DNA of 64,000 nt from Megaleporinus macrocephalus (lineage: Eukaryota > Chordata > Actinopteri > Characiformes > Anostomidae), in contig CM038720.1 of NCBI GenBank assembly GCA_021613375.1, forward strand, positions 1,474,069-1,538,068, in the 5' to 3' direction. This document shows positions 5,292 to 54,997 of this stretch, piece after piece. The first letter of the stretch is position 1. Each line of letters opens with the position of its first letter. The notes below the pieces were generated by a model. That model searched no databases, was not told where the DNA came from, and saw nothing but the letters and a program-made list of their open reading frames with translations. The position numbers were made by a program, and so were the translations under genes.

Positions 5292-8200
5292 GTGAGTGAC
5301 ACTCAGAACTCCCAATTACTTTTATATATATATATATACATTTAGACACACCAGCACAACACACACTAACACACCACCACGTCAGTGTCACTGCAGTGCT
5401 GAGAATGACCCACCTCCCTAATAGTACCTGCTCTGTGGTGGTCCTGTGTCCGAGAGCCGATACCGATCGAGGGCGGGGCTATATGCCACGACCGGGGTAC
5501 ATATACTTATTAGCGCAAGCACATCATGAAACATGGTCTAAACTGGTTTCTTACCATTTTTAACGAGCTCATATGATATTTTTAACAAAATGTGCAGAAA
5601 ATAAACAAAGTAAATCAAACAAATATCAACAATACTGTAATCATTACATTTTACTCTTAATTTAAAACGAAAAAAGCTAATTAAATACATGCAGTCAGAA
5701 CTGCAGTCGTTAAACTCAGACTGTAATCATTAAATGTAGAATATAGAGTTTCTGCTGCTGTTCTGTTCGTACCGGTCAGATCTGGTCTGTACGGGTTTCT
5801 GGGTTGTTTGTTTTGTGTTAGCTGTGCGTGCTAGCTCTGCTGTTACTGATACTCACTGTATTCAGCTTTACATACGGTAAACACTGCCAGACGGACGACA
5901 TGTTTTCTATCAGCGCATGCTTTTCCTGCGACGCCGCTGCTTTAGTCAGTCTGTGGAAATGAAATGGTATGTGTTTCCACCTAGTGGTTCAGATAGGAAT
6001 TGCAGGGAGCTGGCTGGAGGGCTCCTCTTCCTGGATGAAACGCTAGCTGGAAATACATAAATTAGGCTCATTTGTTTATCGATTGGCTCTCGGGATCCGC
6101 TAAATTGGAGAAATATCGGCTGATCACATTTTTTAAATAAAAATCGATAACGATACATAGCCAATCGATCCTTCCATCTCTACTTTTGACCATATTGTCA
6201 ATGTTTCACGCTAGCACTCAGTTCAGCCTGAGCCATGTTTCACTTGCTGTGTTTCTTTGTGAGATGATGGCGTCCAGCAGCACAAATAGACCCAATGTAA
6301 GTGAGCGTGATGGATTTCTCAACTTTAGGACCTCTGTAAATACTGCTTTATTAAAATACAATTAATATACAAACTAAATAATTAAACGTATTAAAGATCT
6401 CTGGGAAACATATCAAAAGATACAAGTCTCATTTGGACAGCATTACAGGTCCTAATTAGGGGTGTGTTTAAAAAATAGATTTTTCAATTCAAATCGATCT
6501 TCATTTAAATAACCCGGTATCGATTTATAAACCTGAGATCGACCTTTAAAATTAGCATTCCAGGACACTAATGTTTTTAGGAATGGTAGGTTGAGTGTTC
6601 CTTGTACATTTACCCACATTAGTTCTCTGAAAATCTCTTTTCAATTCAAACAAAACATATTATTGTAACTGAAATATCCCTAAATTAATCCATATTCAGT
6701 TTAATCGAATCGGAAATCGAATTGAATTGGAACCTTGTGCATCGGAATCGAAACGATCTGGGAAATCAGTGGCGATACCCAGCCCTAATCCTAATACCTC
6801 TTCCTGTTGTCTGCATGTAACCTCTTAGTGGACCATGTGTGATGAGGTTTCTGACACTATGTGACTCACTGTTATCTATAAACAGGGACTAAAGTACATT
6901 ATCATAGCTGAATACAGAAAACAGTAACAGAGTCAGTCCAGCAGTTTAAACTATACGTTTGTAATTTGCGTTATAGGTTGCAGAGGGAGGAGGAAGCAGC
7001 CTACGCCAGCAGCCATGGCACCCAATCACAGTCTCCGGCTCAGCCGTCTCAGTCTCAGCCCAGTCTCACACCTTTCTCCAAGTTTGAGGAGAAGAAAACC
7101 AACGAGAAGACCCGTAAAGTGACCACTGTGAAAAAGTTCTTCAGCCCATCCTCCCGTACCGCTCCTAAGAAAGGTATGATCTCCTGCAGGCAGAGAAGCT
7201 CAGCTAGAAAAAATATATTTCATTCCTTTCATAGCTACTGTTCAACAACACTCACAACTCATAACACGTCTATCACAGTACCTACCTTTAGAGTTATACA
7301 CTCAACCTAATGAGAAACTGTAACTCAGTTTATATACAATACCTACATTTAGAGTTATACACTCAACCTAATGAGAAACTGTAACTCAGTTTATATACAA
7401 TACCTACATTTAGAGTTATACATTCAACCTAATGAGAAACTGTAACTCAGTTTATATACAATACCTACATTTAGAGTTATACATTCAACCTAATGAGAAA
7501 CTGTAACTCAGTTTATATACAATACCTACATTTAGAGTTATACATTCAACCTAATGAGAAACTGTAACTCAGTTTATATACAATACCTACATTTAGAGTT
7601 ATACACTCAACCTAATGAGAAACTGTAACTCAGTTTATATACAATACCTACATTTAGAGTTATACATTCAACCTAATGAGAAACTGTAACTCAGTTTATA
7701 TACAATACCTACATTTAGAGTTATACACTCAACCTAATGAGAAACTGTAACTCAGTTTATATACAATACCTACATTTAGAGTTATACACTCAACCTAATG
7801 AGAAACTGTAACTCAGTTTATATACAATACCTACATTTAGAGTTATACACTCAACCTAATGAGAAACTGTAACTCAGTTTATATACAATACCTACATTTA
7901 GAGTTATACATTCAACCTAATGAGAAACTGTAACTCAGTTTATATACAATACCTACATTTAGAGTTATACATTCTACCTAATGAGAATCTGTAACTCAGT
8001 TTATATACAATACCTACATTTAGAGTTATACATTCAACCTAATGAGAAACTGTAACTCAGTTTATATACAATACCTACATTTAGAGTTATACATTCAACC
8101 TAATGAGAAACTGTAACTCAGTTTATATACAATACCTACATTTAGAGTTATACACTCAACCTAATGAGAAACTGTAACTCAGTTTATATACAATACCTAC

Positions 8201-11200
8201 ATTTAGAGTTATACACTCAACCTAATGAGAAACTGTAACTCAGTTTATATACAATACCTACATTTAGAGTTATACACTCAACCTAATGAGAAACTGTAAC
8301 TCAGTTTATATACAATACCTACATTTAGAGTTATACATTCTACCTAATGAGAATCTGTAACTCAGTTTATATACAATACCTACATTTAGAGTTATACATT
8401 CAACCTAATGAGAAACTGTAACTCAGTTTATATACAATACCTACATTTAGAGTTATACATTCAACCTAATGAGAAACTGTAACTCAGTTTATATACAATA
8501 CCTACATTTAGAGTTATACATTCAACCTAATGAGAAACTGTAACTCAGTTTATATACAATACCTACATTTAGAGTTATACATTCAACCTAATGAGAAACT
8601 GTAACTCAGTTTATATACAATACCTACATTTAGAGTTATACACTCAACCTAATGAGAAACTGTAACTCAGTTTATATACAATACCTACATTTAGAGTTAT
8701 ACATTCAACCTAATGAGAAACTGTAACTCAGTTTATATACAATACCTACATTTAGAGTTATACATTCAACCTAATGAGAAACTGTAACTCAGTTTATATA
8801 CAATACCTACATTTAGAGTTATACATTCTACCTAATGAGAATCTGTAACTCAGTTTATATACAATACCTACATTTAGAGTTATACACTCAACCTAATGAG
8901 AAACTGTTACTCAGTTTATATACAATACCTACATTTAGAGTTATACATTCAACCTCAGTAGAGTTTCTGATGAGATCATGTGTGTGGGTGACTAGTTAAT
9001 TGTTTAATTGCAGGTAAAGAGCTGTGTGTTCTCTGGTTTGAGTCCAGTTCAGGTTTTTGCTCCAGCTCTGCTGTGGGAGTTGAAGACAGATGAAAGTAGA
9101 TCTGTAGTTATGTCTGAACTCACTTTCACTTTAGTTTGTTTAGTCTTGACAGATTGTTTCTTCTTCCGTATCTGAACCTTCCACACAGCGTTACTGCTCT
9201 GACTGGTCCACCGTGTCCTCGAGTCCTTCTCAGAACTTGCTGTTTACATCTACATCACTTCCTCTTCTCATCACATCACCTTTTCTCTCTTTATTTATTT
9301 ATGTTTATTTGTTTTTGCAGCTCTTTATATAAAAGCATCAACCAAATTAATCCTTGATTGAGACACATTCAGTTTATTGATTTCGATCCTGATGATTTAC
9401 CTCCGTTATGTTTTAATGATATGAGCGTGATCACTTATTCCCTCCACGCTTTCATTTCCTCTTTTTTAAATTCATGTCATCACAATCCACTTGCATGCTC
9501 TTCTCTTTCTCTCTGTGGCCTTTTCTTTCCTTTGTTCCTCTTTTTCTCTTCTCCCCTCTTTATCATTTGCACCACACTCCACCCTGCCCCCAGCCCCAGT
9601 GCTGTGCGAGAGAGAGAGGGATGAGGAAAGAGAGAGGGGGGAGAAGTTTCAGGGCAGGAGAGAGAGCCACGGGGAGACACTGCTGAGGGACCTGAGGGGC
9701 ATTTTTACCCCTAACTGGGAGATGAGCTCTCCTACTGAAGGTAGATGTGAAAGTAGAGGTTGCAGTGATTTGTTCTGCTCGAGTGCTTCTCTGTTTCAGC
9801 CTCTTACACGCCTCAGAAACAAGACCTGTCAGATCTCCTCTGGGTTCCTCTTCAACCTCCATATAGTATTTTCTGTAGTATTCCATATTTATATACCTCC
9901 TTCTGTACACCCATCACTGTACCTCCATATAGTACCTCAGTATATTTCTCTCTCTCTGTGTAGTACATCAGCATAGTACTCTATTTCTGTGTAGTACATC
10001 AGCATAGTACTCTATTTCTGTGTAGTACATCAGCATAGTACTCTATTTCTGTGTAGTACATCAGCATAGTACTCTGTTTCTATGTAGTACCTCAGTATAG
10101 TAGTTAATTTTTGTTACGCCTCGGTGTAGTGCTCTATTTCTGTTTAGTACCTCAGTGTAGTACTTTTTTCTTTATAGTACCTCTGTGTGGTAACCTATTT
10201 CTGTATAGTACCTCAGTGTAGTACTATATTACTATATAGTATCTATCTGTGTAGTATCTCAGTATAGTATCTATCTGTGTAGTATCTCAGTATAGTATCT
10301 ATCTGTGTAGTATCTCAGTATAGTACTCTGTCTGTGTAGTATCTCAGTATAGTACTCTGTCTGTGTAGTATCTCAGTATAGTATCTATCTGTGTAGTATC
10401 TCAGTATAGTACTCTGTCTGTGTAGTATCTCAGTATAGTACTCTGTCTGTGTAGTATCTCAGTATAGTATCTATCTGTGTAGTATCTCAGTATAGTACTC
10501 TGTCTGTGTAGTATCTCAGTATAGTACTCTGTCTGTGTAGTATCTCAGTATAGTATCTATCTGTGTAGTATCTCAGTATAGTACTCTGTCTGTGTAGTAT
10601 CTCAGTATAGTACTCTGTCTGTGTAGTATCTCAGTATAGTACTCTGTCTGTGTAGTATCTCAGTATAGTACTCTGTCTGTGTAATATCTCAGTATAGTAT
10701 CTATCTGTGTAGTATCTCAGTATAGTACTCTGTCTGTGTAGTATCTCAGTATAGTATCTATCTGTGTAGTATCTCAGTATAGTATCTATCTGTGTAGTAT
10801 CTCAGTATAGTACTCTGTCTGTGTAGTATCTCAGTATAGTATCTATCTGTGTAGTATCTCAGTATAGTACTCTGTCTGTGTAGTATCTCAGTATAGTATC
10901 TATCTGTGTAGTATCTCAGTATAGTACTCTGTCTGTGTAGTATCTCAGTATAGTATCTATCTGTGTAGTATCTCAGTATAGTACTCTACTGTGTAGTATC
11001 TCAGTATAGTATCTATCTGTGTAGTATCTCAGTATAGTACTCTGTCTGTGTAGTATCTCAGTATAGTATCTATCTGTGTAGTATCTCAGTATAGTATCTA
11101 TCTGTGTAGTATCTCAGTATAGTACTCTGTCTGTGTAGTATCTCAGTATAGTACTCTGTCTGTGTAGTATCTCAGTATAGTATCTATCTGTGTAGTATCT

Positions 11201-11911
11201 CAGTATAGTACTCTGTCTGTGTAGTATCTCAGTATAGTACTCTGTCTGTGTAGTATCTCAGTATAGTATCTATCTGTGTAGTATCTCAGTATAGTACTCT
11301 GTCTGTGTAGTATCTCAGTATAGTATCTATCTGTGTAGTATCTCAGTATAGTACTCTGTCTGTGTAGTATCTCAGTATAGTACTCTACGGTGTAGTACCT
11401 CCAACCACAGAAGTTGGTTCCTGTGTTCTTCAGTCCGGTTCTGGTTACTTCTTGTCCATCAGTCTGTTTTTTTCTTTCTCAGCTGTTTGTGTTTTTGCAT
11501 CCACTCCGTCCTTAATGCTTGTGTGGTGTGTGTTATGTTGTGTGGTGTGTGTTATGTTGTGTGTTGTGTGTTGTGTGGTGTGTGTTGTGTGCTGTGGTGT
11601 GTGTTGTGTGGTGTGTGTTGTGTGTTGTGTTGTGTTGTGTTATGTTGTGTGGTGTGTGTTGTGTGTTGTGTTATGTTGTGTTGTGTTGTATGTGTTGTGT
11701 GTGTTTTGTGTTGTGTATGTGTGTTGTGTGGTGTGTGTTGTGTTGTGTGGTGTTTGTTTGTTGTATGTGTTGTGTGTGTATGTATGAGTATGTTGTGTGT
11801 TGTGTGATATGTTGTGTGTGTATGTTGTGTGTGTGATATGTTGTGTGTGTATGTGTTGTATGTGTTGTGTGTGTGATATGTTGCGTGTGTATGTGTTGTG
11901 TGTGTGATATG

Positions 11912-11955
<44 letters not shown>

Positions 11956-14900
11956 TATGTTGTGTGCTGTTCTGCTCATGTGTTGTTGCTGTTTTGTCAT
12001 CACACTGTCTCTGATCTCCTGTCTGATGGGCAGCTCTGGTGTCCAGGCTCAGAGGTGGGTGTGTATGTGATGGAGCATGATAGTTTGGGGACGATTAGAT
12101 TTCTTTTTAAAGTGTTTTTGTTTTAATGTTTGTTTTTGTTTACATCTCAGTGAAGTCTGCAGTGTATCTATATTTCTGATGATAAAGAAGCTCTGTCTGA
12201 ACCTTTAAACACCTGAAAGTGTTCAGAGCTGTTGGCATCAGTGAGTTATTTTTGTAACGTTTGTAAAATTTTGTGAGTTATTTACTGTTTTTAATGAGTT
12301 TCTGTTTAATATGTAAAGTTATTGAGTATCTTATTCAACAAAAAAACATTTTGAAAAGCTGGCCGTCCCCAAACTATTGATGGGCAGTGTAGATGTTAGT
12401 CATGCTCTGCTGAGGAGTTCATGTTTAAATGTTTTATACGTTCTTGATTGTAAAGTAACTTCCTGCCGTGGCGTTGTTTCAGAAACGTGTGATTAACACG
12501 TTAGCTACGCTGCAGGAAGTGTCTCTCACTCGTTAATCTGTTTGTTCAGCTGCTTCAAACAGACGTACTCACAGTTTAACACGGATTGACCCTGTTACGT
12601 AACTGTGTTTCACAGCTGCTGGTATTTGCAGCAGATCAATATCTAATCAGACATTCCTGCTGTTTGAAGGTTCAGCGTGAAGCTGCATTCCTCCTCTATC
12701 TGCCTGCTGGACTGACTTGAGTCTCGGAGTCAGTCTGGACGGTGCAGTGGATTGAGTATGCAGATGTGGTCAATGCGCTGGAGTGTTTGTGTGGATTCTG
12801 CTGGTTCTTCTTGAAGACCTCAGCAAGTGTGCTAACTGCTAAATTAGCCTTGTAGCTCCAGCGCTAACTCAAAGAAGCAACCGTCTGTTTCTTAGCCGAT
12901 TGTCCACATTTGATGAGATGTTTGAGATGTTTGAGCTGGATGTCGACTCTCTGAACCCTTTGATGCACTAGTAATGCAAACCCCGCCCAAAGCACAGCTT
13001 GGATCAGAAACAACTCGTCTTTATTACCTGTTTTATTTCAGGACCGTCCGAGTATTTATTTTCTATTAAAGTAAATCAGTTTATTATGTTTAATTGTCAA
13101 GAATAGCTTTTATTTTATTACATCAAGTTTACACACTTGGGTCAAAGATCACTCGTGTGTGCAAATTAAGGCGTAATGTGATTAATAGTGATAAGTAAAT
13201 ATTTTAGCAGTGATTTCGCCCAAACAATAGTTCACATTTAAAATATGTTTATTATCCACTTCATCACACAACACGTACATATCACTAATAACAATAACAC
13301 TGATATTGAGCTGTAGTGTAGCTGTAGTGAAAGTGTAGTGTAACAATAGTGAACTGTAGTGCAACACTAGTGAACAGTAGTATAACTGTAGTGTAACAAT
13401 AGTGAACAGTAGGGTAATTTTAGTGAACAGTAGTGTAACACTAATAAACTGTAGTGTAATAGTTGTAGAGTCTAGTTTAACAACAGTGAACAGCTGTGTA
13501 ACACAAGTAAACTAGTGTAGCCGAAGTGTAGTGTAGTGTAACTGTAATGAACTGTAGCGTTACTAGTAAAGTGTAGTGTAACAGGAGTGAACTGTAGTGT
13601 AACTGTAGTAAAATGTAATGTAACATTACTGTAACTATAATGTAACACTGGTAACAGTAGTGAGCTGTAGTGTAACAGGAGTGAGCTGTAGTGTAACTGT
13701 AGTAAAATGTAATGTAACGTTACTGTAACTATAATGTAACACTGGTAACAGTAGTGAGCTGTAGTGTAACAGGAGTGAGCTGTAGTGTAACTGTAGTAAA
13801 ATGTAATGTAACATTACTGTAACTGTAGTGTAACTGGTAACAGTAGTGAGCTGTAGTGTAACTGGTAACAGTAGTGAGCTGTAGTGTAACTGTAGTAAAA
13901 TGTAATGTAACATTACTGTAACTGTAGTGTAACTGGTAACAGAAGTGAGCTGTAGTGTAACTCTGGTAACTGTAGTGAGCTGTAGTGTAACTCTGGTAAC
14001 AGTAGTGAGCTGTAGTGTAACTGTAGTGAGCTGTAGTGTAACTCTTGTAACAGTAGTGAGCTGTAGTGTAACTGTGGTAACAGTAGTGAGCTGTAGTGTA
14101 ACTGTAGTGAGCTGTAGTGTAACTCTGGTAACAGTAGTGAGCTGTAGTGTAACTAGTGAGCTGTAGTGTAACTGTAGTGAGCTGTAGTGTAACTCTGGTA
14201 ACAGTAGTGAGCTGTAGTGTAACTAGTGAGCTGTAGTGTAACTCTGGTAACAGTAGTGAGCTGTAGTGTAACTGTAGTGAGCTGTAGTGTAACTCTGGTA
14301 ACAGTAGTAAGCTGTAGTGTAACTGTATTGAGCTATAGTGTAACTGTATTAAGCTGTAGTGTAACTATAGTGAGCTGTAGTGTAACTCTGGTAGCAGTAG
14401 TGAGCTGTAGTGTAACTGTATTGAGCTGTAGTGTAACTGTAGTGAGCTGTAGTGTAACTCTGGTAACAGTAGTGAGCTGTAGTGTAACTGTAGTGAGCTG
14501 TAGTGTAACTCTGGTAACAGTAGTGAGCTGTAGTGTAACTCTGGTAACAGTAGTGAGCTGTAGTGAGCTGTAGTGTAACTCTGGTAACAGTAGTGAGCTG
14601 TAGTGTAACTCTGGTAACAGTACTGAGCTGTAGTGTAACTGTAGTGAGCTGTAGTGTAACTCTGGTAACAGTAGTGAGCTGTAGTGTAACTCTGGTAACA
14701 GTAGTGAGCTGTAGTGTAACTGTAGTGAGCTGTAGTGTAACTCTGGTAACAGTAGTGAGCTGTAGTGTAACTCTGGTAGCAGTAGTGAGCTGTAGTGTAA
14801 CTGTATTGAGCTGTAGTGTAACTGTAGTGAGCTGTAGTGTAACTCTGGTAACAGTAGTGAGCTGTAGTGTAACTGTAGTGAGCTGTAGTGTAACTCTGGT

Positions 14901-17900
14901 AACAGTAGTGAGCTGTAGTGTAACTCTGGTAACAGTAGTGAGCTGTAGTGTAACTGTAGTGAGCTGTAGTGTAACTCTGGTAACTGTAGTGAGCAGTAGT
15001 GAGCTGTAGTGTAACTGTAGTGAGCTGTAGTGTAACTCTGGTAACAGTAGTGAGCTGTAGTGTAACCCTGGTAACAGTAGTGAGCTGTAGTGTAACTCTG
15101 GTAACAGTAGTGAGCTGTAGTGTAACTCTGGTAACAGTAGTGAGCTGTAGTGTAACTGTAGTGAGCTGTAGTGTAACTCTGGTAACAGTAGTGAGCTGTA
15201 GTGTATTTGTAGTGAGCTATAGTGTAACTCTGGTAACAGTAGTGAGCTGTAGTGTAACTGTAGTGAGCTATAGTGTAACTCTGGTAACAGTAGTGAGCTG
15301 TAGTGTAACTGTAGTGAGCTATAGTGTAACTCTGGTAACAGTAGTGAGCTGTAGTGTAACTGTAGTGAGCTATAGTGTAACTCTGGTAACAGTAGTGAGC
15401 TGTAGTGTACGTGTAGGTTTAAACTTTGAGCTGTATTTTGTTGGACTCGCTAACGGGAGCTTCTTACGATCAAACAGACAATTATGGAAATTAGGTGATG
15501 TAGCGACTTCAGGACAGCCAATAGCTGCTTTCCTTACTGAGGAGTTGGCAACACTGCATGTTGTGCATCAGAGGGTTCAGGACTGTTATGAAGCTGCAGC
15601 GTGTAGAAGGTCCAGTGGGCGTTTAGGGGGTCTGAGTCTCCACCTGGTTTTAATGCGCTGCTTTATTGTTTCAGAGAGCCACGAGGGGAAGTCACACAGC
15701 CCCTCCTTCACACGGCAGCCGAGCCTGGAGACTGACCGCGTGTCCAGAGACTTTGTGGACTTCCTGAAGAACCTGCAGAAACCCGGACGAGAAATCCACA
15801 AACAGAGCCGAGTCTTCATCGAGAGCATGGCCAACAAGAAGGTGAGAGATCTGAGAGCCTGTAAAGCCCCCCGTGTCCCACCACCAACACAACCAGCAAC
15901 CACATACGTGATAGATCACAAATGACCTCACGTGACTGCGTTGCTGGTGGTGTGAACTACAGATGGAGGGCAGGAAGTGATTCTCCACATGGGGGCGCTA
16001 TCACACTCTCTCAGAATCTACTGTGATGTTCTATTTGTATCTTTCTCTCCTGATATCGTCTCAACTAGTGCAGCATCTTCTCTGCTCTGTTCTTCACCTC
16101 CATCTCCTCCACTCTGTTCTTCACCTCCATCACCTCCACTGTTCTATACCGCCATCTCCTACACTCTATTCTTCACCTCCATCACCTCCACTCTGTTCTT
16201 CACCTCCATCTCCTACACTCTGTTCTTCACCTCCATCTCCTCCACTCTGTTTCTCACCTCCATCTCCTCCACTCTGTTCTTCACCTCCATCTCCTACACT
16301 CTGTTTCTCACCTCCATCTCCTCCACTCTGCTCTTCACCTCCATCTCCTGCACTATATTCTTCACCTCCATCTCCTCCACTCTGTTTCTCACCTCCATCT
16401 CCTCCTCTCTGTTCTTCACCTCCATCTCCTCCACACTATTTTTCACCTCCATCTCCTCTGCTTTGTTCTTCACCTCCATCTCTTACACTCTGTTCTTCAC
16501 CTCCATCTCCTCCACTCTGTTCCTCACCTCCATCTCCTCCACTCTGTTTCTCACCTCCATCTCCTCCTCTCTGTTCTTCACCTCCATCTCCTCCACTCTG
16601 TTCTTCATCTCCATCTCCACTGCTTTGTTCTTCACCTCCATCTCTTACACTCTGTTCTTCACCTCCATCTCCTCCACTCTGTTCCTCACCTCCATCTCCT
16701 CCACTCTATTTCTAACCTCCATCTCCTCCACTCTGTTTCTAACCTCCATCTCCTCCTCTCTGTTCCTCACCTCCATCTCCTCCACTCTGTTCCTCACCTC
16801 CATCTCCTCCACTCTGTTCCTCACCTCCATCTCCTCCGCTCTGTTCCTCACCTCCATCTCCTCCACTCTGTTCTTCACCTCCATCTCCTCCACTCTGTTT
16901 CTAACCTCCATCTCCTCCACTCTGTTTCTAACCTCCATCTCCTCCACTCTGTTCTTCACCTCCATCTCCTCCACTCTGTTCTATACCTCCATCTCCTCCA
17001 CTCTGTTCTATGCCTCCAAATCCTCCACTCTGTTCCTCACCTCCATCTCCTCCATCTCCTCCACTTTGTTCTTCACCTCCATCTCCTCCACTCTGTTCCT
17101 CACCTCTATCTCCTCCACTCTGTTTCTCACCTCCATCTCCTCCACTCTGTTTCTCACCTCCATCTCCTCCACTCTGTTTCTAACCTCCATCTCCTCCACT
17201 CTGTTCTTCACCTCCATCTCCTCCACTCTGTTCCTCACCTCCATCTCCTCCACTCTGTTTCTAACCTCCATCTCCTCCACTCTGTTTCTAACCTCCATCT
17301 CCTCCACTCTGTTCTTCACCTCCATCTCCTCCACTCTGTTCTTCACCTCCATCTCCTCCACTCTGTTCTTCACCTCCATCTCCTCCACTCTGTTCTATAC
17401 CTCCATCTCCTCCACTTTGTTCCTCACCTCCATCTCCTCCACTCTGTTTCTAACCTCCATCTCCTCCACTCTATTTCTAACCTCCATCTCCTCCACTCTG
17501 TTTCTAACCTCCATCTCCTCCTCTCTGTTCCTCACCTCCATCTCCTCCACTCTGTTCCTCACCTCCATCTCCTCCATCTCCTCCACTCTGTTCTTCACCT
17601 CCATCTGCTCCACTCTGTTCTTCACCTCCATCTCCTCCACTCTGTTCTTCACCTTCATCTCCTCCACTCTGTTCTTCACCTCCATGTCATCCACTCTGTT
17701 CTTCACCTCCATCTCCTCCACTCTGTTCTTCACGCACTGCCTCCATCACGAGCCCCTGTGCTCTGATTGGTCCACTCGGAGGACTCGGGCCGGTTCAGAG
17801 TGAGTTCTAATGTACAGTGAGATCAGACTACAGCTGCTGTTTCAGGCTGTCTGAGTGGTTTCAGTCTCGGAGCTGTTGTTGTGTAAACATGTTTTCCCCG

Positions 17901-18314
17901 AGATTACCTCAGCAGATTGTGAAACACCTGAAGGACAAGTGCGTACGAGAAGTTACGTCATAAACAGCCCGGCGCTCGCTGTCCGTCCAGTATTTACTCA
18001 GCGGTCCGAACGCTGCTCCTGCTGTGTACTGTACTGGTATTAAATCTCAGTGCTGACCGTGTGTCCGGTGTTTTAGGACCTTGGTGCTGACGAGCTGTCC
18101 GAGTGTGTACAGGACTTCTACCAGAACATGTCTGATCGTCTCATGACTCATTTTAAAGGTGAGTTTCTTTATTTACTCAGTACATAGTAATTAAACCGCG
18201 TCACTGTGTGTATAAATAAAGAAGCTGGAAAGTACAAATCAAGTGTTCTAAAACTTTTGACCCGTGTGTATGTGCGTGTGTGTATGTATGTATGTATGTA
18301 TGTATGTATGTATG

Positions 18315-18351
<37 letters not shown>

Positions 18352-18730
18352 ATGTTAGGGCTGTTTATAGGCAAGTTCCTGGCGATACAATACGTATCGT
18401 GGTACAGAGGTCACGATTCAATATATCATGATGCAAACAAAGTGATAAACTGTGATTTTTCAAATCCTACTATGAAATCACTCCACTGTATGAACAGGTT
18501 TATCAATGTTTACAATAGCACTGCGTCCTTGTGCTGCTTGTTAATGTTGGAGTGGAGCTGAAAATGGATTACAACACTGACATCTAGTGGTCAGAGGTTT
18601 AAACACAACACACAATGATTCACTGTCTGCCAGGAATCTGTGTATCAATACTGTGTTTTTGAGAATCGATACTGTATCACTAAACAAAATATCCCGATAA
18701 TCAATATTTCGATATTTTCGTACACCCCTA

Positions 18731-18788
<58 letters not shown>

Positions 18789-21700
18789 ATAAAGTACATA
18801 TGATATATACTTTCCAGCCTCTCTTTATCCTTCAGAAGACTGTTCTTGTTATTGTGCCGTTAAGACTAATATACTTAAATAAGCTGTGTTCTGATTGGCT
18901 GCCTCATTTACTAACACATTCTTTATGGAAGGATCTGCTGTAGGCTGAATGGGTGGAGCTAAACTGCTGTAGACTGAATAGGTGGAGCTAAACTGCTATA
19001 GGCTGAATGGGTGGAGCTAAACTGCTGTAGGCTGAATGGGTGGAGCTAAACTGCTGTAGGCTGAATGGATGGAGCTAAACAGCTGTAGGTTGAATGGGTG
19101 GAGCTAAACTGCTGTAGGCTGAATGGGTGGGGCTAAACTGCTGTAGGCTGACTGGGTGGAGCTAAACTGCTGTAGGCTGAATGGGTGGGGCTAAGCTGCT
19201 GTAGGCTGAATGGGTGGAGCTAAACTGCTGTAGGCTGAATGGATGGAGCTAAACAGCTGTAGGTTGAATGGGTGGAGCTAAACTACTGTAGGCTGAATGG
19301 GTGGGGCTAAACTGCTGTAAGCTGACTGGGTGGAGCTAAACTGCTGTAGGCTGAATGGGTGGAGCTAAACTGCTGTAGGCTGAATGGGTGGGGCTAAGCT
19401 GCTGTAGGCTGAATGGGTGGAGCTAAACAGCTGTAGGTTGAATGGGTGGAGCTAAACTGCTGTAGGCTGAATGGGTGGGGCTAAGCTGCTGTAGGCTGAA
19501 TGGGTGGGGCTAAGCTGCTGTAGGCTGAATGGGTGGAGCTAAACTGCTGTAGGCTGAATGGGTGGATGTATGTAGAAAATGGACTAAATAGAGAGGGTTA
19601 CTTTAACGGTCAGGCAGTGGGTTGGCATGGTCAGTGTGTAGTGGAGGTCATTAGAGGTCATTAGAAATGGTCAGTTATAAGCCTATTACAGCAGTTTAGC
19701 AATCCTGGAGGTAAATACAGCGTGAGCTGGGTTTCCTGCTGCACTGGATGATGAATGAGTCGAAGAATTAGAACAAAACATTACCACATTCTGACCCTTT
19801 GATCACAAATACCTTCAATCAATAAGGGGCGGAGCTAATCCACAGCATTTCAGAAGCACACAAAGAAAATCTATAAATATATGAAATATATCAAATTAAA
19901 AATAAGCCGCCGTCTGATAAATGACTCACAGAGTTGCTTAAAGCAATTACATACCTGCATGCAAATTAGATGTAAATTAGACAAATGATCTGTGTAGTTT
20001 CTGCACTCCGTCCAGGTGAGACTGGAATTACAGCCAATCCTGTCTTCTCTACAGGTTCTTCGGAAAAGGTGGAGCGAGTGATGGATCAGGTGGAGAAGTA
20101 CATCATGACCCGCCTCTATAAAAGTGTCTTCTGTCCCGAGACGACGGACGATGAGAAAAAAGATCTGGCAACCCAGCACAGGATCCGGTGAGGAGCTTTA
20201 CATGGAGTAAAATGTTTAAAAATAATAAAAAAGAATAAAAATACTACTTACATACTGTGGTGAAGGCAGAAGAAGGCATGGACTGGTGATCCATGGTGTA
20301 CCCGATAACGCTGGGATTGGCTCTAGCTCCAGCTGATGTTGGTGATGGTGACGGTGTTTGTGATGGTGACTGTGTTGGTGACTGTGATGGTGACTGTTGT
20401 TTATGGTGACAGTGACGGTGTTGGTGACCGTGTTGGTGACCGTGTTGGTGACTGTGTTGGTGACTGTGTTGGTGACTGTGTTGTTGATGGTGACAGTGAC
20501 GGTGGTGGTGACTGTGTTGTTGATGGTGACAGTGATGGTGTTGGTGATTGTGATGGTGTTGGTGACTGTGTTGGTGACTGTGTTGTTGATGGTGACAGTG
20601 ATGGTGTTGGTGATTGTGATGGTGTTGGTGACTGTGTTGGTGACTGTGTTGTTGATGGTGACAGTGACGGTGTTGGTGACTGTGTTGGTGTTGGTGACTG
20701 TGTTGTTGATGGTGACAGTGACGGTGTTGGTGACTGTGTTGTTGATGGTGACAGTGACTGTGTTGGTGACGGTGTTGGTGACTGTGATGGTGACTGTTGG
20801 TGACTGTGATGGTGACTGTGTTGTTGATGGGGACAGTGATGGTGTTGGTGATTGTGATGGTGTTGGTGACTGTGTTGGTGACTGTGTTGTTGATGGTGAC
20901 AGTGACGGTGTTGGTGACTGTGTTGTTGATGGTGACAGTGATGGTGTTGGTGATTGTGATGGTGTTGGTGACTGTGTTGGTGACTGTGTTGTTGATGGTG
21001 ACAGTGATGGTGTTGGTAATTGTGATGGTGTTGGTGACTGTGTTGTTGATGGTGACAGTGACGGTGTTGGTGACTGTGTTGTTGATGGTGACAGTGACGG
21101 TGTTGGTGATTGTGACTGTGATGGTGACTGTGATGGGGACTGTGTTGGTGTTGGTGACTGTGTTGTTGATGGTGACAGTGTGTTGGTGACTGTGATGGTG
21201 ACTGTGTTGGTGTTGGTGACTGTGTTGTTGATGGTGACAGTGATTGTGTTGGTGACTGTGTTGTTGATGGCGACAGTGACGGTGTTGGTGACTGTGTTGG
21301 TGACTTTGTTGTTGATGGTGACAGTGACTGTGTTGGTGACTGTGTTGTTGCTGGTGACAGTGACTGTGTTGGTGACTGTGTTGTTGCTGGTGACAGTGAC
21401 GGTGTTGGTGACTGTGTTGTTGATGGTGACAGTGACTGTGTTGGTGACTTTGTTGTTGATGGTGACAGTGACTGTGTTGGTGACTGTGTTGTTGCTGGTG
21501 ACAGTGACGGTGTTGGTGACTGTGTTGGTGACTGTGTTGGTGACTGTGTTGTTGATGGTGACAGTGACGGTGGTGGTGACTGTGTTGTTGATGGTGACAG
21601 TGACGGTGTTGGTGACCGTGTTGGTGACCGTGTTGGTGACCGTGTTGGTGACTGTGTTGGTGACTGTGTTGTTGATGGTGACAGTGACGGTGGTGACTGT

Positions 21701-24700
21701 GTTGTTGCTGGTGACAGTGACGGTGTTGGTGACGGTGTTGGTGACTGTGTTGTTGATGGTGACAGTGACTGTGTTGGTGACTTTGTTGTTGATGGTGACA
21801 GTGACTGTGTTGATGACTGTGTTGTTGCTGGTGACAGTGACGGTGTTGGTGACTGTGTTGGTGACTGTGTTGGTGACTGTGTTGTTGATGGTGACAGTGA
21901 CGGTGGTGGTGACTGTGTTGTTGATGGTGACAGTGACGGTGGTGGTGACTGTGTTGTTGATGGTGACAGTGACGGTGTTGGTGACGGTGTTGGTGACTGT
22001 GTTGGTGACTGTGTTGGTGACTGTGTTGTTGATGGTGACAGTGACGGTGGTGGTGACTGTGTTGTTGATGGTGACAGTGACGGTGTTGGTGATGGTGTTG
22101 GTGTTGGTGTTGCAGGGCTCTACACTGGGTCACTATTCAGATGCTGTGCGTTCCTGTGGATGAAGAAATCCCAGAAGTGGCTGACAGTGTAGTGAAGGCT
22201 ATTACAGGTAACTGCCCTCGTCTCACCTGCTCTGTTTACTTCTGACCAGCAGTAACGCTGTGAGGGAGACGAAAGCCGAGATGAAATGTTTCTCTCCTCC
22301 TCAGATATTATTGAGATGGACTCTAAACGTGTGCCCAGAGATAAGCTAGCCTGCATCACCAGCTGCAGCAAACACATCTTCAACGCTATTAAGGTGACCA
22401 AGAAGGAACCGGCCTCGGCCGACGACTTCCTGCCCACGCTCATCTACATCGTCCTGAAGGCCAACCCCCCCAGACTGCAGTCCAACATCCAGTACATCAC
22501 CCGCTTCTGCAACCCCAGCCGCCTGATGACCGGCGAGGACGGCTATTACTTCACCAACCTGGTGAGACATCTATCACCCTGAACGGACGCTGAACTCCTG
22601 TGATGTCCAGGCTTCTCTTTCCAGCCACACGAGCAGCAGCTCAAACTATTCCACTCGTTTAAATCAGTTTTATTGGAATAAAAACATGCAGCCGCGCCGG
22701 ACCTGCTGTACTCGTAACCATAATCCCATCAGACACGTTACAGTGTCTCAGTTCTCTCATCAGTTAATGTAAATAATCAGACATACAATACAAAGTAACA
22801 TGGATATGTTATTGTGAGAGAACTAGATCAGATCTTGATCCAGTTTGAAGAACAAAGTTAGGTTCCAGATTTCTCCTGGACGCCCCAGACATTGTATGAA
22901 TGTGTTCAGTTCTTGATTTATCTTAATGAAGTACTGAGCAGTCAAAGCAGGTATTAGATCAGAACTGATAATAAAACTGGGTTGTTTAGGAGAAGCTTGG
23001 AAAGAGTTAAATAAACACACTGACGTATGAAAAACACTACTTACTCTATTAATACTGATTAATATTTAATAATAAAGTGTAAAAGCTCTACTTACTCTAT
23101 TAATACTGATCAATATTTAATAATAAAGTGTAAAAGCTCTACTTACTCTATTAATACTGATTAATATTTAATAATAAAGTGTAAAAGCTCTACTTACTCT
23201 ATTAATACTGATTCATATTTAATAATAAAGTGTAAAAGCTCTACTTACTCTATTAATACTGATTAATATTTAATAATAAAGTGTAAAAGCACTACTTACT
23301 CTACTAATACTGATTAATATTTAATAATAAAGTGTAAAAGCACTACTTACTATATTAATACTGATTAATATTTAATAATAAAGTGTAAAAGCTCTACTTA
23401 CTCTATTAATACTGATTAATATTTAATAATAAAGTGTAAAAGCTCTACTTACTCTATTAATACTGATTAATATTTAATAATAAAGTGTAAAAGCTCTACT
23501 TACTCTATTAATACTGTTTAATATTTAATAATAAAGTGTAAAAGCACTACTTACTCTATTAATACTGATTAATATTTAATAATAAAGTGTAAATGCTCTA
23601 CTTACTCTATTAATACTGATTAATATTTAATAATAAAGTGTAAAAGCTCTACTTACTCTATTAATACTGATTAATATTTAATAATAAAGTGTAAAAGCAC
23701 TACTTACTCTATTAATACTGATTAATATTTAATAATAAAGTGTAAAAGCTCTACTTACTCTATTAATACTGATTAATATTTAATAATAAAGTGTAAAAGC
23801 TCTACTTACTCTATTAATATTGATTAATATTTAATAATAAAGTGTAAAAGCACTACTTACTCTATTAATACTGATTAATATTTAATAATAAAGTGTAAAA
23901 GCTCTACTTACTCTATTAATACTGTTTAATATTTAATAATAAAGTGTAAAAGCTCTACTTACTCTATTAATATTGATTAATATTTAATAATAAAGTGTAA
24001 AAGCTCTACTTACTCTATTAATACTGATTAATATTTAATAATAAAGTGTAAAAGCACTACTTACTCTATTAATACTGATTAATATTTAATAATAAAGTGT
24101 AAAAGCTCTACTTACTCTATTAATACTGATTAATATTTAATAATAAAGTGTAAAAGCTCTACTTACTCTATTAATATTGATTAATATTTAATAATAAAGT
24201 GTAAAAGCTCTACTTACTCTATTAATACTGTTTAATATTTAATAATAAAGTGTAAAAGCTCTACTTACTACTCAAGGGCAAGTTTTTCCAATGGGAAGGT
24301 GGTTGTGTAACAGATCAAAGAAGACCAGGATTGTCTCAGAAATCAATTGATGTAATCTGTTACTGAACTGCGTCTTCAGATCTGAGATCAGCTCCAGGGT
24401 CAGTGGACTGAACATGGTGTTCAATGTGGTTGTTGTTACGTTTGAACTACAAGAGAAATCTGAAATCTGATTACATCAATTTCTGATCAGTTCTGATCTT
24501 CTTTGATCTGCTACACGACCACCTTCCCATTGGACAAACTCTCCCTTGATCCAATATGGCGGCTTTCAAGATGGTGGCAATGTTTGGGATACAGCCTAAA
24601 AGATAGCCCCCCCCCCACCCCCACCCCACCCGTTACTTTTGACTCACTCTGTGTATGTTTATATATCACCTGATGGTCAGGAGTTTGAGTTCTGGTGATG

Positions 24701-25274: not shown

Positions 25275-26484
25275 CAGGAGCAGCGGCGGAGTGGTGGAAG
25301 TCGATCGCAGTCGGTTGTGCCGCTTCCATCTCGTCGGGTTTGGTGGACTTCTGTTTGTTTAGCGTCCCTCGAAGCTCTTGCACTTTGCTGTCGGCGGCCG
25401 CTGGACTACAGTTCTGCGAGTGGAGCTGCAGCTACGGGCAGCAGAGAATCTGCAGAACTACAGTCCAGCTGTTCACCTGGACTTACATTATACAAACTAA
25501 CACACAGCACTAACATTACTAGTGTTCAACAGTAGATCAGGACCGCGCTGACCAGCCTCATCCACGTCCTGAGCGTCCACTCTGTAGCGTCTGCGGGTAC
25601 ACTAAACAAAAAAACGCTGAATTTACTTAATTATGCATCATTTCCTCATTAAATCTTACACAAACACTCATCAGCTGAACGTAGGACAGTGACGGAGAAA
25701 CGCTACAGGTTTGAAAATGTTCCTCTAGTTCAGATAAACATCTAAGTTCCAACTCAAACATTATATTTTATTATAATTATAATATAATATTATCATAATA
25801 TCCCATGTGACCCAATGAGTGAACTCATTAATAAGAGTTATTTTTAATTATATCGTAACACTGTATTTAAAAACCACAACAGATTCCGTTCATCAGACTT
25901 TATGCAAATTAATCTGGACAGCACGGAACGTCTACCCAATCAGAGGGCCAGCTGCATAGCTTCATGAAGGCGTTCATCTTGCACCAGTGTAAATGTGTAA
26001 ATACAGCACTAAGCTTCAGAAACTATTCCGATCTCTAAAAAGGGGGAGTAGAAGCTTCCTGGTCCGTTGATCTCCATGTTTGATGTTAGAGCTAATCAGA
26101 TTTAAGCTCAGAGAACGTTTAGGCCAAAGGAACATTCCTTATATGGGCGTGAATTAAATATTTGAAAATATTACATGTAACACGTGAAAATTATGGATCA
26201 GGTGAGTTCAGCATCTCCACTGATGTTTCAGAACTTCTACATAATTCAGGTGTAAACAGAGAGTGTTTTTAGTGTGAGGTGGTTCAGATGGTGTGTATAT
26301 ATAAACTGTATTTACTATGAAACCCACCAGTGAAGCTACACGTGTCTTCTGAGTTTATCTGGATGTTGATGGTAAAATGTGGAAGATCTGAAAATACTAG
26401 GTTTTCTTTGGGGACTATTTGAACCTCACAGCGTCCTGCATGTATCCCTCCACCATGAATGGAGTTTAAGACTGAGATCTTCTC
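25275..26484. other. rabgef1 3' UTR and downstream sequence
   Basis: Unique, increasingly AT-rich sequence after the stop codon with an ATTAAA at 25648. No further gene seen. Confidence 0.5.
25648..25653 (+). terminator. Candidate poly(A) signal for rabgef1 (ATTAAA)
   Basis: ATTAAA lies 374 bp past the rabgef1 stop, a normal 3' UTR distance. Canonical AATAAA hexamers occur later, at 28137 and 28193, after a Kolobok/T2-like element, so a longer 3' UTR is also possible. Confidence 0.35.
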
Positions 26485-26602
26485 TAAACATCATAAACAG
26501 CGTCTCAGAATCAGACATTGTATTTATAACATCTACTGTAAGAACTTTCTGTGAGGAGCTTTTAGAGGAGGACGTCTGGTTCCATTCACCTCCACTGTGA
26601 AC
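26485..26602 (+). mobile_element. Solo arm of the inverted-repeat element at 422-959
   Basis: Shares CAGCGTCTCAGAATCAGACA and CGTCTGGTTCCATTCACCTC with both arms at 422-959, at very high identity. The partner arm is absent. Confidence 0.75.
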
Positions 26603-26977
26603 CTCGTTATGCAGAAATTTTGAAAAATTGGTGGAGTTCCTCTTTGAACATGCGTGCTATGCTGCTGTGGAATGAAGTTCTGAGGAAAGGCTCTCCTTAG
26701 ACTACTGGTAAGGGATGTGTTGTCCTTTAGAAAAGCTTGAAATGAAATGTAGAGTATTGATTTACTGATATTGATTATTTCAGGTATACGTGCGGTACCT
26801 TTGTTTTTTGTTATGAATATGAATTTTGTTATTCTCTGTAGTGTTACTGTACCAGACTGTGGTTTGGTGTAAACATCTAAACGTAAACACTAGTTACAGA
26901 TTGTACACTGTATATACGGCTGAGCTGTTACCATGACTACAGGAGTATAAACTGAGTTTCTGTACTGCTATACTACT

Positions 26978-27980
26978 TTAAAGGGCCCGTATGTCACTGT
27001 TCTCCACGTTTCTGTGTTTGTGTAGCATGAATGCTTCTAATTCATCTCTGTATGAGCTGTTCCAGCCTCTCTTTCTCCTTTAAAGCTCATTTATACTCTC
27101 TTGTACTCAAAAGACCCCCTGATCTTTGGGCGGGGGTCCCACAGTGGCTGCTTGCTCACTCCTACCCTCTCCATAGTGGTGCTGATGTCAGTAATGATTT
27201 GGTTCATCAGCTCTTCTTCTTCTACTCTTTTCTAGTTTGGCAGATGGTTACAGCTGGAAGGCTGTAGAGGACCACCAGGGTGAACTAGTCTGCTACAGCG
27301 CCCCCCTGAGGCAGACCAGTGACGCAGCTCTAGTTAGTGAGGAGTACCGACCACAGCAGCTCACTGATGAACTCTGAGCTGAATGGGTGGAGCTAAACAG
27401 CTGTAGGCTGAATGGGTGGAGCTAAAGTGCTTTAGACTGAAAAGGTGGCGCTAAAGTGCTTTAGGCTGAATGGGTGGAGCTAAACTTGCATTGAACTGAA
27501 TGGGTGGAGCTAAACAGCTGTAGGCTGAATGGGTGGAGCTAAACTTGCATTGAACTTAGTGGGTGGAGCTAAACAGCTGTGAGCTGAATGGGTGGAGCTA
27601 AACTTGCATTGAACTGAGTGGGTGGAGCTAAACTGCTGTAGGCTGATTGGGTGAAGCTATACTGCTGTAGGCTGAATAGGTGGAGCTAAACAGCTGTAGG
27701 CTGAATGGGTGGAGCTAAACCGCTGTAGGCTGAATGGGTGGAGCTAAACAGCTGTAGGCTGAATGGGTGGAGCTAAACTGCTATAGGCTGAATAGGTGGA
27801 GCTAAACTGCTGTAGGCTGAATGGGTGGAGCTAAACTGCTGTAGGCTGAATGGGTGGAGCTAAACTGCTGTTTGTGACATCACGAAAGCGCTTCATTCAG
27901 AATGGGCTGTTTCTGTGTTTGGACTGTGTGTGTCGGAGTTGATGGTTAGCGGTGACTCTTTTCTCATACGGGCCCTTTAA
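26978..27980. mobile_element. Kolobok/T2-like non-autonomous element carrying a 29-bp minisatellite
   Basis: It begins TTAAAGGGCCCGTATG and ends with the exact complement CATACGGGCCCTTTAA, a 16-bp perfect inverted end including TTAA. TTAAAGGRR ends with TTAA duplications are the known signature of the T2/Kolobok group. The interior holds a 29-bp array (about 27377-27870). No transposase. Confidence 0.75.
27377..27870 (+). repeat. 29-bp minisatellite, locus 2 (inside the Kolobok/T2-like element)
   Basis: Units GGCTGAATGGGTGGAGCTAA plus ACTGCTGTA, with ACAGCTGTA and ACTTGCATTGAACT variants. Same unit as 18935-19567. Confidence 0.95.
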
Positions 27981-28136
27981 CGAGGCTGTGTTGTGGTGCA
28001 GTGTTGTGTTTGGTAACAGTTGTATGATGTCACACTTCTCTCCGTGGTAACCAGGTACACAGACACTATACTCACACAGGTTTTGGGTGGAGTCTCACAC
28101 GTGTGATCTTTTGTGAGTGTTAAGTTTTATTTCTAG

Positions 28137-28142
28137 AATAAA
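28137..28142 (+). terminator. Candidate distal poly(A) signal (AATAAA)
   Basis: AATAAA at 28137, with a second at 28193-28198. They would give a 3' UTR of about 2.9 kb that contains the 26978-27980 transposon. Only the hexamers support this. Confidence 0.25.
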
Positions 28143-28204
28143 AGTCACTGACCGGCGTGACGCTGCTGTGAGCGTCTCTTTAATCAACACTCAATAAAAC
28201 CTTC

Positions 28205-29185: not shown

Positions 29186-29218
29186 AGACCAACACTGACA
29201 CCTAGTGGCTGATCTGTG

Positions 29219-29225
<7 letters not shown>

Positions 29226-33430: not shown

Positions 33431-33469
33431 TGATTTTTAGTGTTAGTGATTACTGATTGGATTATCTGT

Positions 33470-34090
33470 TACAGTCCTGCAGCAGTATTGATGATCACTG
33501 ATCAGCTGATCTACCCCAGCCCTGCAGCAGTATTGATGATCACTGATCAGTTGATCTGCTACAGCCCTGCATCAGTATTGATGATCACTGATCAGTTGAT
33601 CTACCCCAGCCCTGCAGCAGTATTGATGATCACTGATCAGTTGATCTACCCCAGCCCTGCATCAGTATTGATGATCACTGATCAGTTGATCTACCCCAGC
33701 CCTGCATCAGTATTGATGATCACTGATCAGTTGATCTACCCCAGCCCTGCATCAGTATTGATGATCACTGATCAGTTGATCTACCCCAGCCCTGCATCAG
33801 TATTGATGATCACTGATCAGTTGATCTACCCCAGCCCTGCATCAGTATTGATGATCACTGATCAGTTGATCTACCCCAGCCCTGCATCAGTATTGATGAT
33901 CACTGATCAGTTGATCTACCCCAGCCCTGCATCAGTATTGATGATCACTGATCAGTTGATCTACCCCAGCCCTGCATCAGTATTGATGATCACTGATCAG
34001 TTGATCTACCTCAGCCCTGCATCAGTATTGATAATTACTGATAAGTTTATCTGTTACAGCCCTGCAGCAGTATTGATAATCACTGATCTG
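33470..34090 (+). repeat. 45-bp minisatellite upstream of the trim37 promoter
   Basis: About 13 copies of CAGTATTGATGATCACTGAT plus CAGTTGATCTACCCCAGCCC plus TGCAT. The period is a multiple of three, giving a 275-codon open frame that is not a gene. Confidence 0.97.
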
Positions 34091-34099
34091 CAGCAGTGT

Positions 34100-34400
34100 T
34101 GCAGTGCTGCATGGGTGCAGAGAGGTGGGCGAGGCGTGCGACCAAGCTCAGTCCCCTCGCTCTCAATCCCGTCTCTGATTGGCCGGCGTAAATCGCAGCG
34201 CCCTCTGCGATTGGCGCGAGCGGTTTCCCATGGTGACGGACACTGCCCAGCGCAGTGTGGATGCTAAGCTAACGCGGCGCCGTCGGCGGACAGACGGAGC
34301 AAAACTGCCCGCTTCTGCCCTCAAACCCGACGTCCATGTAGGCGTTTGAGGCGAGACACAGCAGATTAACGTCCCCACTGCGAGGTAACCCCGAGCCGCT
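34100..34400 (+). promoter_or_regulatory. CpG-rich promoter and non-coding first exon of trim37
   Basis: This is the only clearly CpG-dense stretch near a gene start. It has two inverted CCAAT boxes (GATTGGC at about 34176 and 34209) and GC-rich sequence. It ends in a donor-like CTGCGAG|gtaacc at 34384/34385, so a non-coding exon 1 probably ends at 34384. The first coding exon is 1 kb downstream. The 45-bp minisatellite stops only tens of bases upstream. Confidence 0.65.
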
Positions 34401-34607
34401 CTCTGTTTTAGCCGGAAAATCACTAATACAGCCCCGCTGGTCTGCGTTAGCTTCACCGGAGCTATGCTAAGCTAACGGTAGCGGCGGTGTTTATTAGCAG
34501 CGATATTAAAACTGCTCGTGTTTAATTAAAGGGGATTAACGAGTTTAAATTTGGGTCACCCTAAAATTTATATATCAGTTGCCTGGAAAATTTTAACTCT
34601 TTATTTT

Positions 34608-34730
34608 CTGAAGTTAGCTTCTTATTAGAATTCTCCGTTCCACCTTAAATGGCGCAGCAGTTAGGTTCTGGGGCCTGAGGCTGCACCATTTAAGGTGGAA
34701 CGGAGAATTCCAATAAGAAGCTAACTTCAG
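34608..34730. mobile_element. Near-perfect 50-bp hairpin (MITE-like)
   Basis: Arms 34608-34657 and 34681-34730 match at 48 of 50 positions, with a 23-base loop. It contains TTCCACCTTAAATGG and its complement. It lies in the first intron of trim37. Confidence 0.85.
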
Positions 34731-35064
34731 CTACTTCTTTCTTTAGATTTAGCCTAAAAAAAGTCCCCCTTAAAATCTCTTTCACTCCTAAATCAGCTCC
34801 AGCTTTGTTTACGGAGGACTCCTGATGTTTGTGTAGCAGAAACTGAAATATTAGTATATATTTAGCATTAGCTGCCGCTGCTAATTCTGACACTAGCACC
34901 CAACTTGCTTTACCCATCACATCACATTAAAGCTGTTGCTGGTTTGCTTATTTCTGGTCATGTATATCACGAAACACTGTAGTTTAACGACTGGCTGTCC
35001 TCATAAAACTTAGAACCACGAAAAACTACAGCCTCCCAAACGGAGCTGAAGGCCTGGAGCTCAT
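34731..35064. other. Unique intron 1 sequence of trim37
   Basis: No array or transposon end recognised. Short TTAGC-rich words only. Confidence 0.4.
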
Positions 35065-35245
35065 CTACTTGAACACAACTGAGCATACAGGAGCTCCACT
35101 TACAGACTGTAGTTCATCTGGTTCTCTGTATACTTTATTACTCCTGGACCCCCACAGGACCACCACAGAGCAGATACTATTAAGGAGGTGGGTCAGTCTC
35201 AGCACTGCAGTGACACTGGCGTGGTGGTGGTGTGCATACTGGTGA
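35065..35245. mobile_element. Dispersed fish repeat, second copy
   Basis: GAGCTCCACTTACAGACTGT, GACCACCACAGAGCAG and CAGCACTGCAGTGACACTGG are shared with 41300-41450 and partly with 5325-5452. Confidence 0.65.
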
Positions 35246-35337
35246 AGATGAACCATCTTAACCCCAGCCTGGAGGTTATGATGTTTGTGTATAGTTTCAT
35301 ATGAAAATGCAAGCTTTCTCTTTCTCCTCCATGACAG

Positions 35338-35399
35338 CAGCTGTTGAAGGAGAACGTTCAGGACCTCAGTTCATCTGCAGAACACTAAAACTGGCTGAG
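35338..35399 (+). other. trim37 5' UTR part of first coding exon
   Basis: Pyrimidine-rich sequence ends CATGACAGCAG, giving tandem acceptors at 35337 and 35340 (a NAGNAG-like pair). About 60 bases of UTR then lead to ATG at 35400. An in-frame TGA just upstream (CTGGCTGAG region) supports this start. Confidence 0.5.

Positions 35400-54997
<19,598 letters not shown>

What the first reader, a model, noticed from the sequence alone, without database searches (positions are those of the whole stretch)
7279..54846. One 61-bp satellite occupies four introns of two different genes, once inverted
Arrays at 7279-8955, 41989-42562 and 49990-50990 are in one orientation and 53921-54846 is the exact reverse. 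They share the same C/T variant site (ACACTC/ACATTC). One family has seeded four unlinked sites within 48 kb, so something moved it: transposition, extrachromosomal circles, or gene conversion between introns. Inverted neighbours in trim37 introns 10 and 15 could pair in the pre-mRNA.
Basis: partly seen in the sequence, partly recalled or inferred. Interest (0 to 1): 0.75.

Follow-up and report, generated by a model that had tools for sequence, protein, structure and literature searches.

The report
Satellite repeat carried by a transposon
A 61-letter repeat found in four gene introns of a piranha-like fish appears to be part of a small genome-wide jumping element, whose inner end was copied many times in tandem and carried into genes, a known way for such repeats to spread.

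Summary
Four arrays of one 61-bp unit lie in a rabgef1 intron and trim37 introns 5, 10 and 15 of a characiform fish; the last is inverted. The local picture does not hold: the family is on at least 14 contigs, the C state of the C/T site occurs in 17 of 26 arrays, and the window's arrays are no closer to each other than to others.

The probable vehicle is visible. Arrays sit inside a short inverted-repeat element with ends YAGRCTCCGCCCAC. A profile built only from loci found through such ends detects them beside 9 of 26 arrays: 13 of 50 flanks, all facing outward; reversed flanks gave nothing better than E 4.9. Array B is a complete 686-bp copy; A keeps an inner end piece; C and D show no ends. 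The unit matches the element's own arm (23 of 24 bases in L039; two of four arms tested were clear), and array-free copies exist. So the satellite most likely arose from the inverted repeat and travelled with it. No target-site duplication was seen; superfamily and activity are open. Similar cases are published in frogs, flies and bivalves.

The parts
7225..7242 (+). Inner piece of the element's left terminal inverted repeat (within CTTTCATAGCTACTGTT) beside array A
   Evidence: 17/17 to TIR positions 24-40; profile from TIR-found loci: E 0.0016 on flanks, E 0.007 in a whole-window scan
7275..8955 (+). Array A, 27.6 copies of the 61-bp unit, rabgef1 intron
   Evidence: array preceded by TATC as in B and some other arrays
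41967..42652 (+). Copy of the TIR element with both termini (686 bp), trim37 intron 5
   Evidence: perfect 17-bp inverted repeat TAGACTCCGCCCACAAA at both ends; both ends match the TIR profile
41987..42563 (+). Array B, about 9.4 copies, inside the element above
49996..50989 (+). Array C, about 16 copies, most diverse of the four (mean pairwise 8.3%), fills 994 of 1048 bp of trim37 intron 10; no recognisable element ends
53921..54854 (-). Array D, about 15 copies, inverted, trim37 intron 15, ends 6-15 nt before exon 16 depending on how the edge is drawn; no recognisable element ends

Best explanation
The 61-bp family is the internal tandem repeat of a small non-autonomous, foldback-like DNA element. 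The element has inverted arms of about 100 bp (YAGRCTCCGCCCACAAATGTGTTCTTTCATAGCTACTGTT... to ...AATCCCATTCAACCTAATGAGAAACTGTAG). The innermost part of an arm plus adjoining internal sequence formed a proto-unit, which was tandemly amplified in one arm and later shortened from about 63-68 to 61 bp. Copies of the element then moved and left arrays in many places, including introns of rabgef1 and trim37. Afterwards each array changed length and was homogenised locally while the ends decayed, leaving apparently bare arrays such as C and D. Shown: the ends, their outward orientation, arrays inside them, unit homology in some arms, array-free copies. Inferred: movement by a transposase supplied in trans, the order of events including the shortening, and that C and D were once inside such elements.
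For: 27 aligned termini are nearly invariant at positions 4-13 and lose conservation within three bases outside (sites were picked by their core, so the outside drop is the informative part). A profile built from 16 termini of 14 TIR-found loci hits 13 of 50 array flanks in 9 of 26 arrays at E<0.01, 13 of 13 facing outward; the only reversed-control hit has E 4.9. L009 supplied the first TIR query; without it 11 flanks in 8 of 25 arrays. In the window the profile gives three hits under E 0.1, all at arrays A and B. Conversely 9 of 16 independent TIR-found loci contain or adjoin 61-64-bp units: 4 of 7, whose query holds no unit, and 5 of 9 fetched, whose query includes some 24 unit-like bases. 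L039 and L040 have both ends with an array inside; L017 holds an 8-kb array between two ends. Arms without array match the unit: L039 23/24, L028 over a unit length (score 65, best of 500 shuffles 27). In L053 the arm runs without a break into 63-bp units; array-free L052 carries one proto-unit-like stretch (score 46, best of 1000 shuffles 33). Array edges are not at random unit phases: 12 of 25 left edges in one 10-nt span, P 0.008; 11 of 25 right edges, P 0.03.
Against: 17 of 26 arrays, C and D among them, show no end at E<0.01. No target-site duplication was seen (by eye) in five elements with both ends (L039, L040, B, L054, L017), so cut-and-paste integration is not demonstrated. No autonomous partner was looked for. 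Of four array-free arms tested, L030's matched the unit no better than shuffles (23, shuffled maximum 28) and L040's only modestly (28 against 23). Direct comparison of the window's own flanks found no homology among A, C and D beyond chance-level matches.
Confidence: 0.87

Rival explanations
1. Multi-unit pieces of array move on their own, as extrachromosomal circles or by template switching, and land in introns; the element ends beside some arrays are later insertions.
For: 17 of 26 arrays lack recognisable ends; edges still occur at many unit phases.
Against: Random circle integration predicts random edge phases, but both edges are clustered (P 0.008 left, 0.03 right) and in L053 the arm continues into the first unit. 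All 13 end hits face outward. Array-free L052 contains a proto-unit-like stretch.
Confidence: 0.08
2. Gene conversion or unequal exchange between introns of rabgef1 and trim37 spread the repeat locally.
For: A and B are not differentiated (shuffle P 0.16), nor B-C and B-D, and all four arrays share the C/T site.
Against: The window arrays are as close to arrays on other contigs; shared substitutions are no more than chance (4 observed, 3.0-5.3 expected); flanks are not shared.
Confidence: 0.03
3. C and D were never inside elements: they arose by local copying from A or B, while A and B came with the element.
For: C and D have no ends; A ranks first of 25 in net closeness to C and second to D.
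Against: The ranks are near ties with L020 and L022 on other contigs; C is the most diverse of the four, unlike a recent copy.
Confidence: 0.2

Closest known systems
Tetris / TIR-220, Drosophila virilis (PMC4079207, passages read, abstract text among them)
   Same: Foldback element whose inverted repeats contain internal tandem repeats that also form longer satellite-like arrays.
   Different: About 220-bp units, amplification in beta-heterochromatin; no sequence comparison made. Here 61-bp units, arrays in introns of a fish.
Xstir MITE repeats and miDNA4, Xenopus (seen only as described in passages of the review PMC12628747)
   Same: Tandem repeats riding on, or derived from, a MITE; elements with longer arrays lose their ends and leave bare satellite arrays.
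   Different: Other elements; miDNA4 is described there as Tc1/mariner with a captured repeat, whereas here the unit overlaps the inverted repeat itself.
Cg_HINE Helentron elements, Crassostrea gigas (PMC7492417, passages read, abstract text among them)
   Same: Short satellite-like arrays dispersed genome-wide as central repeats of a non-autonomous element; no target-site duplication.
   Different: Helentron structure (subterminal inverted repeats, 3' palindrome); here the inverted repeats are terminal.
Short non-clustered satDNAs of Serrasalmidae (PMC9859320: abstract, results, discussion, tables; PMC13156159: abstract, results)
   Same: Short units (up to 76 bp) shared among Characiformes, several not clustered on chromosomes; likely the same group of fish.
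   Different: No unit of 61 bp is listed in the three catalogues. Families of 62 and 65-68 bp are listed, their sequences are not in the text, and older forms of this unit are 63-68 bp, so identity with one of them cannot be excluded.

Membership tests
MITE (non-autonomous TIR DNA transposon) | Terminal inverted repeats at both ends of dispersed copies | tested here: met
   L039, L040, L017, L054 and B have both ends; 27 termini aligned
MITE (non-autonomous TIR DNA transposon) | Target-site duplication of fixed length | tested here: not met
   None seen by eye in 5 elements with both ends; age or small sample may explain it. For that reason I call it MITE-like or foldback-like, not a MITE of a named superfamily
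MITE (non-autonomous TIR DNA transposon) | Autonomous partner with the same ends | not tested
Foldback element with TIR-internal tandem repeats (Tetris-like) | Inverted arms with tandem repeats belonging to an arm | tested here: met
   Arms about 100 bp; unit homologous to array-free arms in L039 and L028, modestly in L040, not in L030; seamless in L053
Foldback element with TIR-internal tandem repeats (Tetris-like) | Relationship of the mobilising transposase (P superfamily; label recalled) | not tested
   No transposase identified
Helentron / HINE | Subterminal inverted repeats, 3' palindrome, TT insertion without TSD | tested here: inconclusive
   No TSD and a T preference at -2 (19 of 27) would fit, but the inverted repeats are terminal; 3' palindrome not tested
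Classical satellite DNA | Long clustered heterochromatic arrays | tested here: inconclusive
   26 measured arrays are 0.6-8 kb in assembled contigs, which does not fit; but two contig-16 stretches run for at least 9.8 kb each and were not measured to their ends, and chromosome location by FISH is not testable here

The most novel reading that the evidence does not exclude
The tandem units in one arm are not passengers but help the element, for example as repeated transposase-binding or foldback sites, so array growth and mobility reinforce each other. The family would then be a still-spreading mobile minisatellite that keeps placing inverted, self-complementary arrays in introns and changes splicing or makes circular RNAs there.
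Probability: 0.12. Interest if true: 0.75.

Novelty: new member of a known kind. Interest (0 to 1): 0.5.

Why it matters
It gives a concrete vehicle and birth mechanism for a dispersed short satellite in a fish group where short, non-clustered satellite families conserved between species have been noted and attributed to short arrays (PMC9859320 discussion). Array-free, intermediate and bare-array stages are found in one genome, so the route from transposon arm to satellite can be followed step by step.

Tried and rejected
Tried and dropped: unit letters in papers (0 papers); the unit in viral and in bacterial/archaeal contigs (0 matches); target-site duplications at the four window arrays (none beyond chance); homology of the window's flanks with each other (no better than random 150-nt pairs apart from B's own ends and one 12-nt match, C left against D right, P 0.015), which alone would have led to rejecting a vehicle; sharing of variants as proof of exchange; hairpin formation by the unit itself (z -2.15, 5 of 200 shuffles fold as well), not pursued; array C as birthplace because its intron has only 54 non-array bases, given up when element arms explained the unit. 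hAT membership from the CAG start was considered and not adopted, as no 8-bp duplication was seen.

Rows dropped before counts: L031 (segmental duplicate of L030), L025 and L033 (array runs through nearly the whole stretch fetched), second small arrays in L024, L026 and L028; flanks L010 right (all N) and L020 left (19 bases). L043 and L044 counted with L042, L047 with L046. Four new hits (two on contig 9, one each on 15 and 21) were not fetched.

Confidence lowered from 0.88 to 0.87 for the query caveat.

Full report
Observation. Tandem Repeats Finder and a wraparound alignment place four arrays of one 61-bp unit at 7275-8955, 41987-42563, 49996-50989 (+) and 53921-54854 (-). No further part of the window shares a 15-mer with the unit. 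The genes are rabgef1 (coding exons about 5.1-25.3 kb) and trim37 (first coding exon near 35.4 kb). The assembled rabgef1 peptide is 96% identical (482 of 502) to Pygocentrus nattereri and 91-93% to Astyanax, so the host is a characiform close to the piranhas. The window lies 1.5 Mb from the start of contig 19 of a 1.28-Gb assembly.

Variation among the four arrays. Full units number A 26, B 9, C 15, D 15; mean pairwise difference within arrays is 1.6%, 2.2%, 8.3% and 3.6%. Units are grouped by array overall (0 of 1000 shuffles as strong). By pairs, A-C, A-D and C-D differ (P 0.001 or less); A-B (0.16), B-C (0.73) and B-D (0.24) do not. Four substitutions, the C/T site included, are shared between arrays; 3.0 to 5.3 are expected by chance depending on transition bias.

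Genome-wide family. A 222-base piece of A gives 102 matches at about 24 sites on 14 contigs; only 40 of 53 candidates were scored and B, C and D themselves were not listed, so this is a lower bound. I fetched these sites with flanks and measured 26 independent arrays, the window's four included, 0.6 to 8 kb long, with 953 full units; two long stretches on contig 16 were not measured to their ends. The C state of the C/T site occurs in 17 of the 26. Net distances among the four window arrays average 0.0071, the same as between them and 19 other arrays of similar diversity; 69% of random foursomes are as close. So the window is an ordinary sample of a dispersed family and shows no sign of local exchange. 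Fifteen of 22 sites (contig-19 sites counted once) lie within 5 Mb of a contig end, against 22% expected (p 5e-6); only the best-matching sites were seen, so this may reflect younger arrays.

The vehicle. Array B is bracketed by a perfect 17-bp inverted repeat. Alone this was only suggestive, and the flanks of A, C and D showed no clear homology in the window. With genome copies the same sequence appeared next to other arrays. A query with one such flank and one with an array-free arm found further copies. L039 (1029 bp) and L040 (1126 bp) hold arrays between inverted arms of about 100 bp; L017 holds 8 kb between two ends. Among 27 aligned termini, positions 4-13 are nearly invariant and conservation falls away within three bases outside.

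Cross-test. A profile from 16 termini of 14 TIR-found loci was run on 50 flanks of the 26 array-found loci. Thirteen flanks in nine arrays (A, B, L009, L011, L013, L015, L017, L023, L030) scored E<0.01, every one facing outward; reversed flanks gave one hit, E 4.9. L009 had supplied the first query; without it the count is 11 flanks in 8 of 25 arrays. Over the whole window the profile has three hits below E 0.1, at the two ends of B and beside A. C and D have none. In the other direction, 9 of 16 independent TIR-found loci contain or adjoin the units: L039, L040, L042, L045 of seven, and L050, L051, L053, L056, L057 of nine fetched, whose query includes some 24 unit-like bases. Of the rest, L049 ends in a gap; L041 and L048 are followed by unrelated tandem repeats; L046 and L055 show no units in the stretch held; L052 and L054 are array-free.

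Birth of the unit. The inner end of the arm reads AATCCCATTCAACCTAATGAGAAACTGTAG; unit positions 29-52 read CATTCAACCTAATGAGAAACTGTA. Four arms without arrays were compared: L039 matches at 23 of 24 bases (score 43, shuffled maximum 22), L028 over a unit length (65 against 27), L040 modestly (28 against 23), L030 not beyond shuffles (23 against 28). L053 shows an arm continuing without a break into 63-bp units. L052 is a short array-free copy with one proto-unit-like stretch, its second arm seen only by direct arm alignment; L054 (237 bp) has both ends and the arm's inner part. Relative to the 61-mer, a C after position 4 is inserted 110 times in 15 arrays and AG after position 51 61 times in 5 arrays, which I read as the older, longer form. 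Array edges are clustered by unit phase on both sides (P 0.008 left, 0.03 right), as expected if many edges are positions in an element.

Mechanism. Shown: ends, orientation, content, arm-unit homology in some copies, array-free copies. Inferred: transposition in trans, local length change and homogenisation, loss of ends. Not shown: a target-site duplication (none in five elements), an autonomous partner, current activity.

Consequences in the gene. C leaves 54 non-array bases in a 1048-bp intron and D stops 6-15 nt before exon 16, so part of the region used for branch-site recognition probably lies in array sequence (inference). C and D could pair over 888 base pairs at -1371 kcal/mol and B with D at -924; two unrelated intronic pieces of 800-900 nt gave -285 and -286 against D, and B with C, same strand, -140. 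Whether this makes exon 11-15 circles is untested.

Comparison. The review PMC12628747 (passages) describes the same route for Xenopus MITEs, and Tetris (PMC4079207, passages) is the closest in having repeats in the arms. Helentron-borne arrays in oysters (PMC7492417, passages) are the same idea with another element. Serrasalmid catalogues (PMC9859320, PMC13156159) list no 61-bp family, though sequences are not in the text. Searches for fish foldback or MITE satellites (11 of 11 papers listed, 15 of 186 listed) showed no title or opening of an abstract that describes this family; that is a limited look at open-licence papers. I file it as a new member of a known kind.

Noticed in passing
window 1-64000: 29,922 of 64,000 bases (47%) lie in 37 tandem-repeat intervals merged by hand, 24 of them at least 400 bp long, dense for a gene region.
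   Followed up: partly
18935-19566 and 27378-27871: A second family, a 29-bp unit (CTGCTGTAGGCTGAATGGGTGGAGCTAAA), occurs at two sites in the same orientation.
   Followed up: partly
26978-27980: The second 29-bp array lies between a perfect 16-bp inverted repeat TTAAAGGGCCCGTATG, suggesting another transposon-borne array with a TTAA-like site; a genome search for it did not complete.
   Followed up: partly
18356-18730, 38363-38676, 51816-52163, 55547-55902: A dispersed repeat of about 340 bp occurs four times, once inverted; the last copy lies between two related tandem arrays at 55214-55535 and 55903-56521.
   Followed up: no
L041 1510 onward; L048 1510 onward: The same element end is followed by unrelated minisatellites (GTTAGGAGTAGG-type and CCTAACCTCAACTGTAAA-type), as if this element family often breeds tandem arrays.
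   Followed up: no
L026 flanks of the array: Left and right flanks of this array are 95% identical over 439 bp in the same orientation, i.e. the array lies between direct repeats.
   Followed up: no
49996-50963 and 7942-8857: Higher-order periods inside arrays: about six units in C (364 bp) and a double variant in A at spacings of six and eight units.
   Followed up: no
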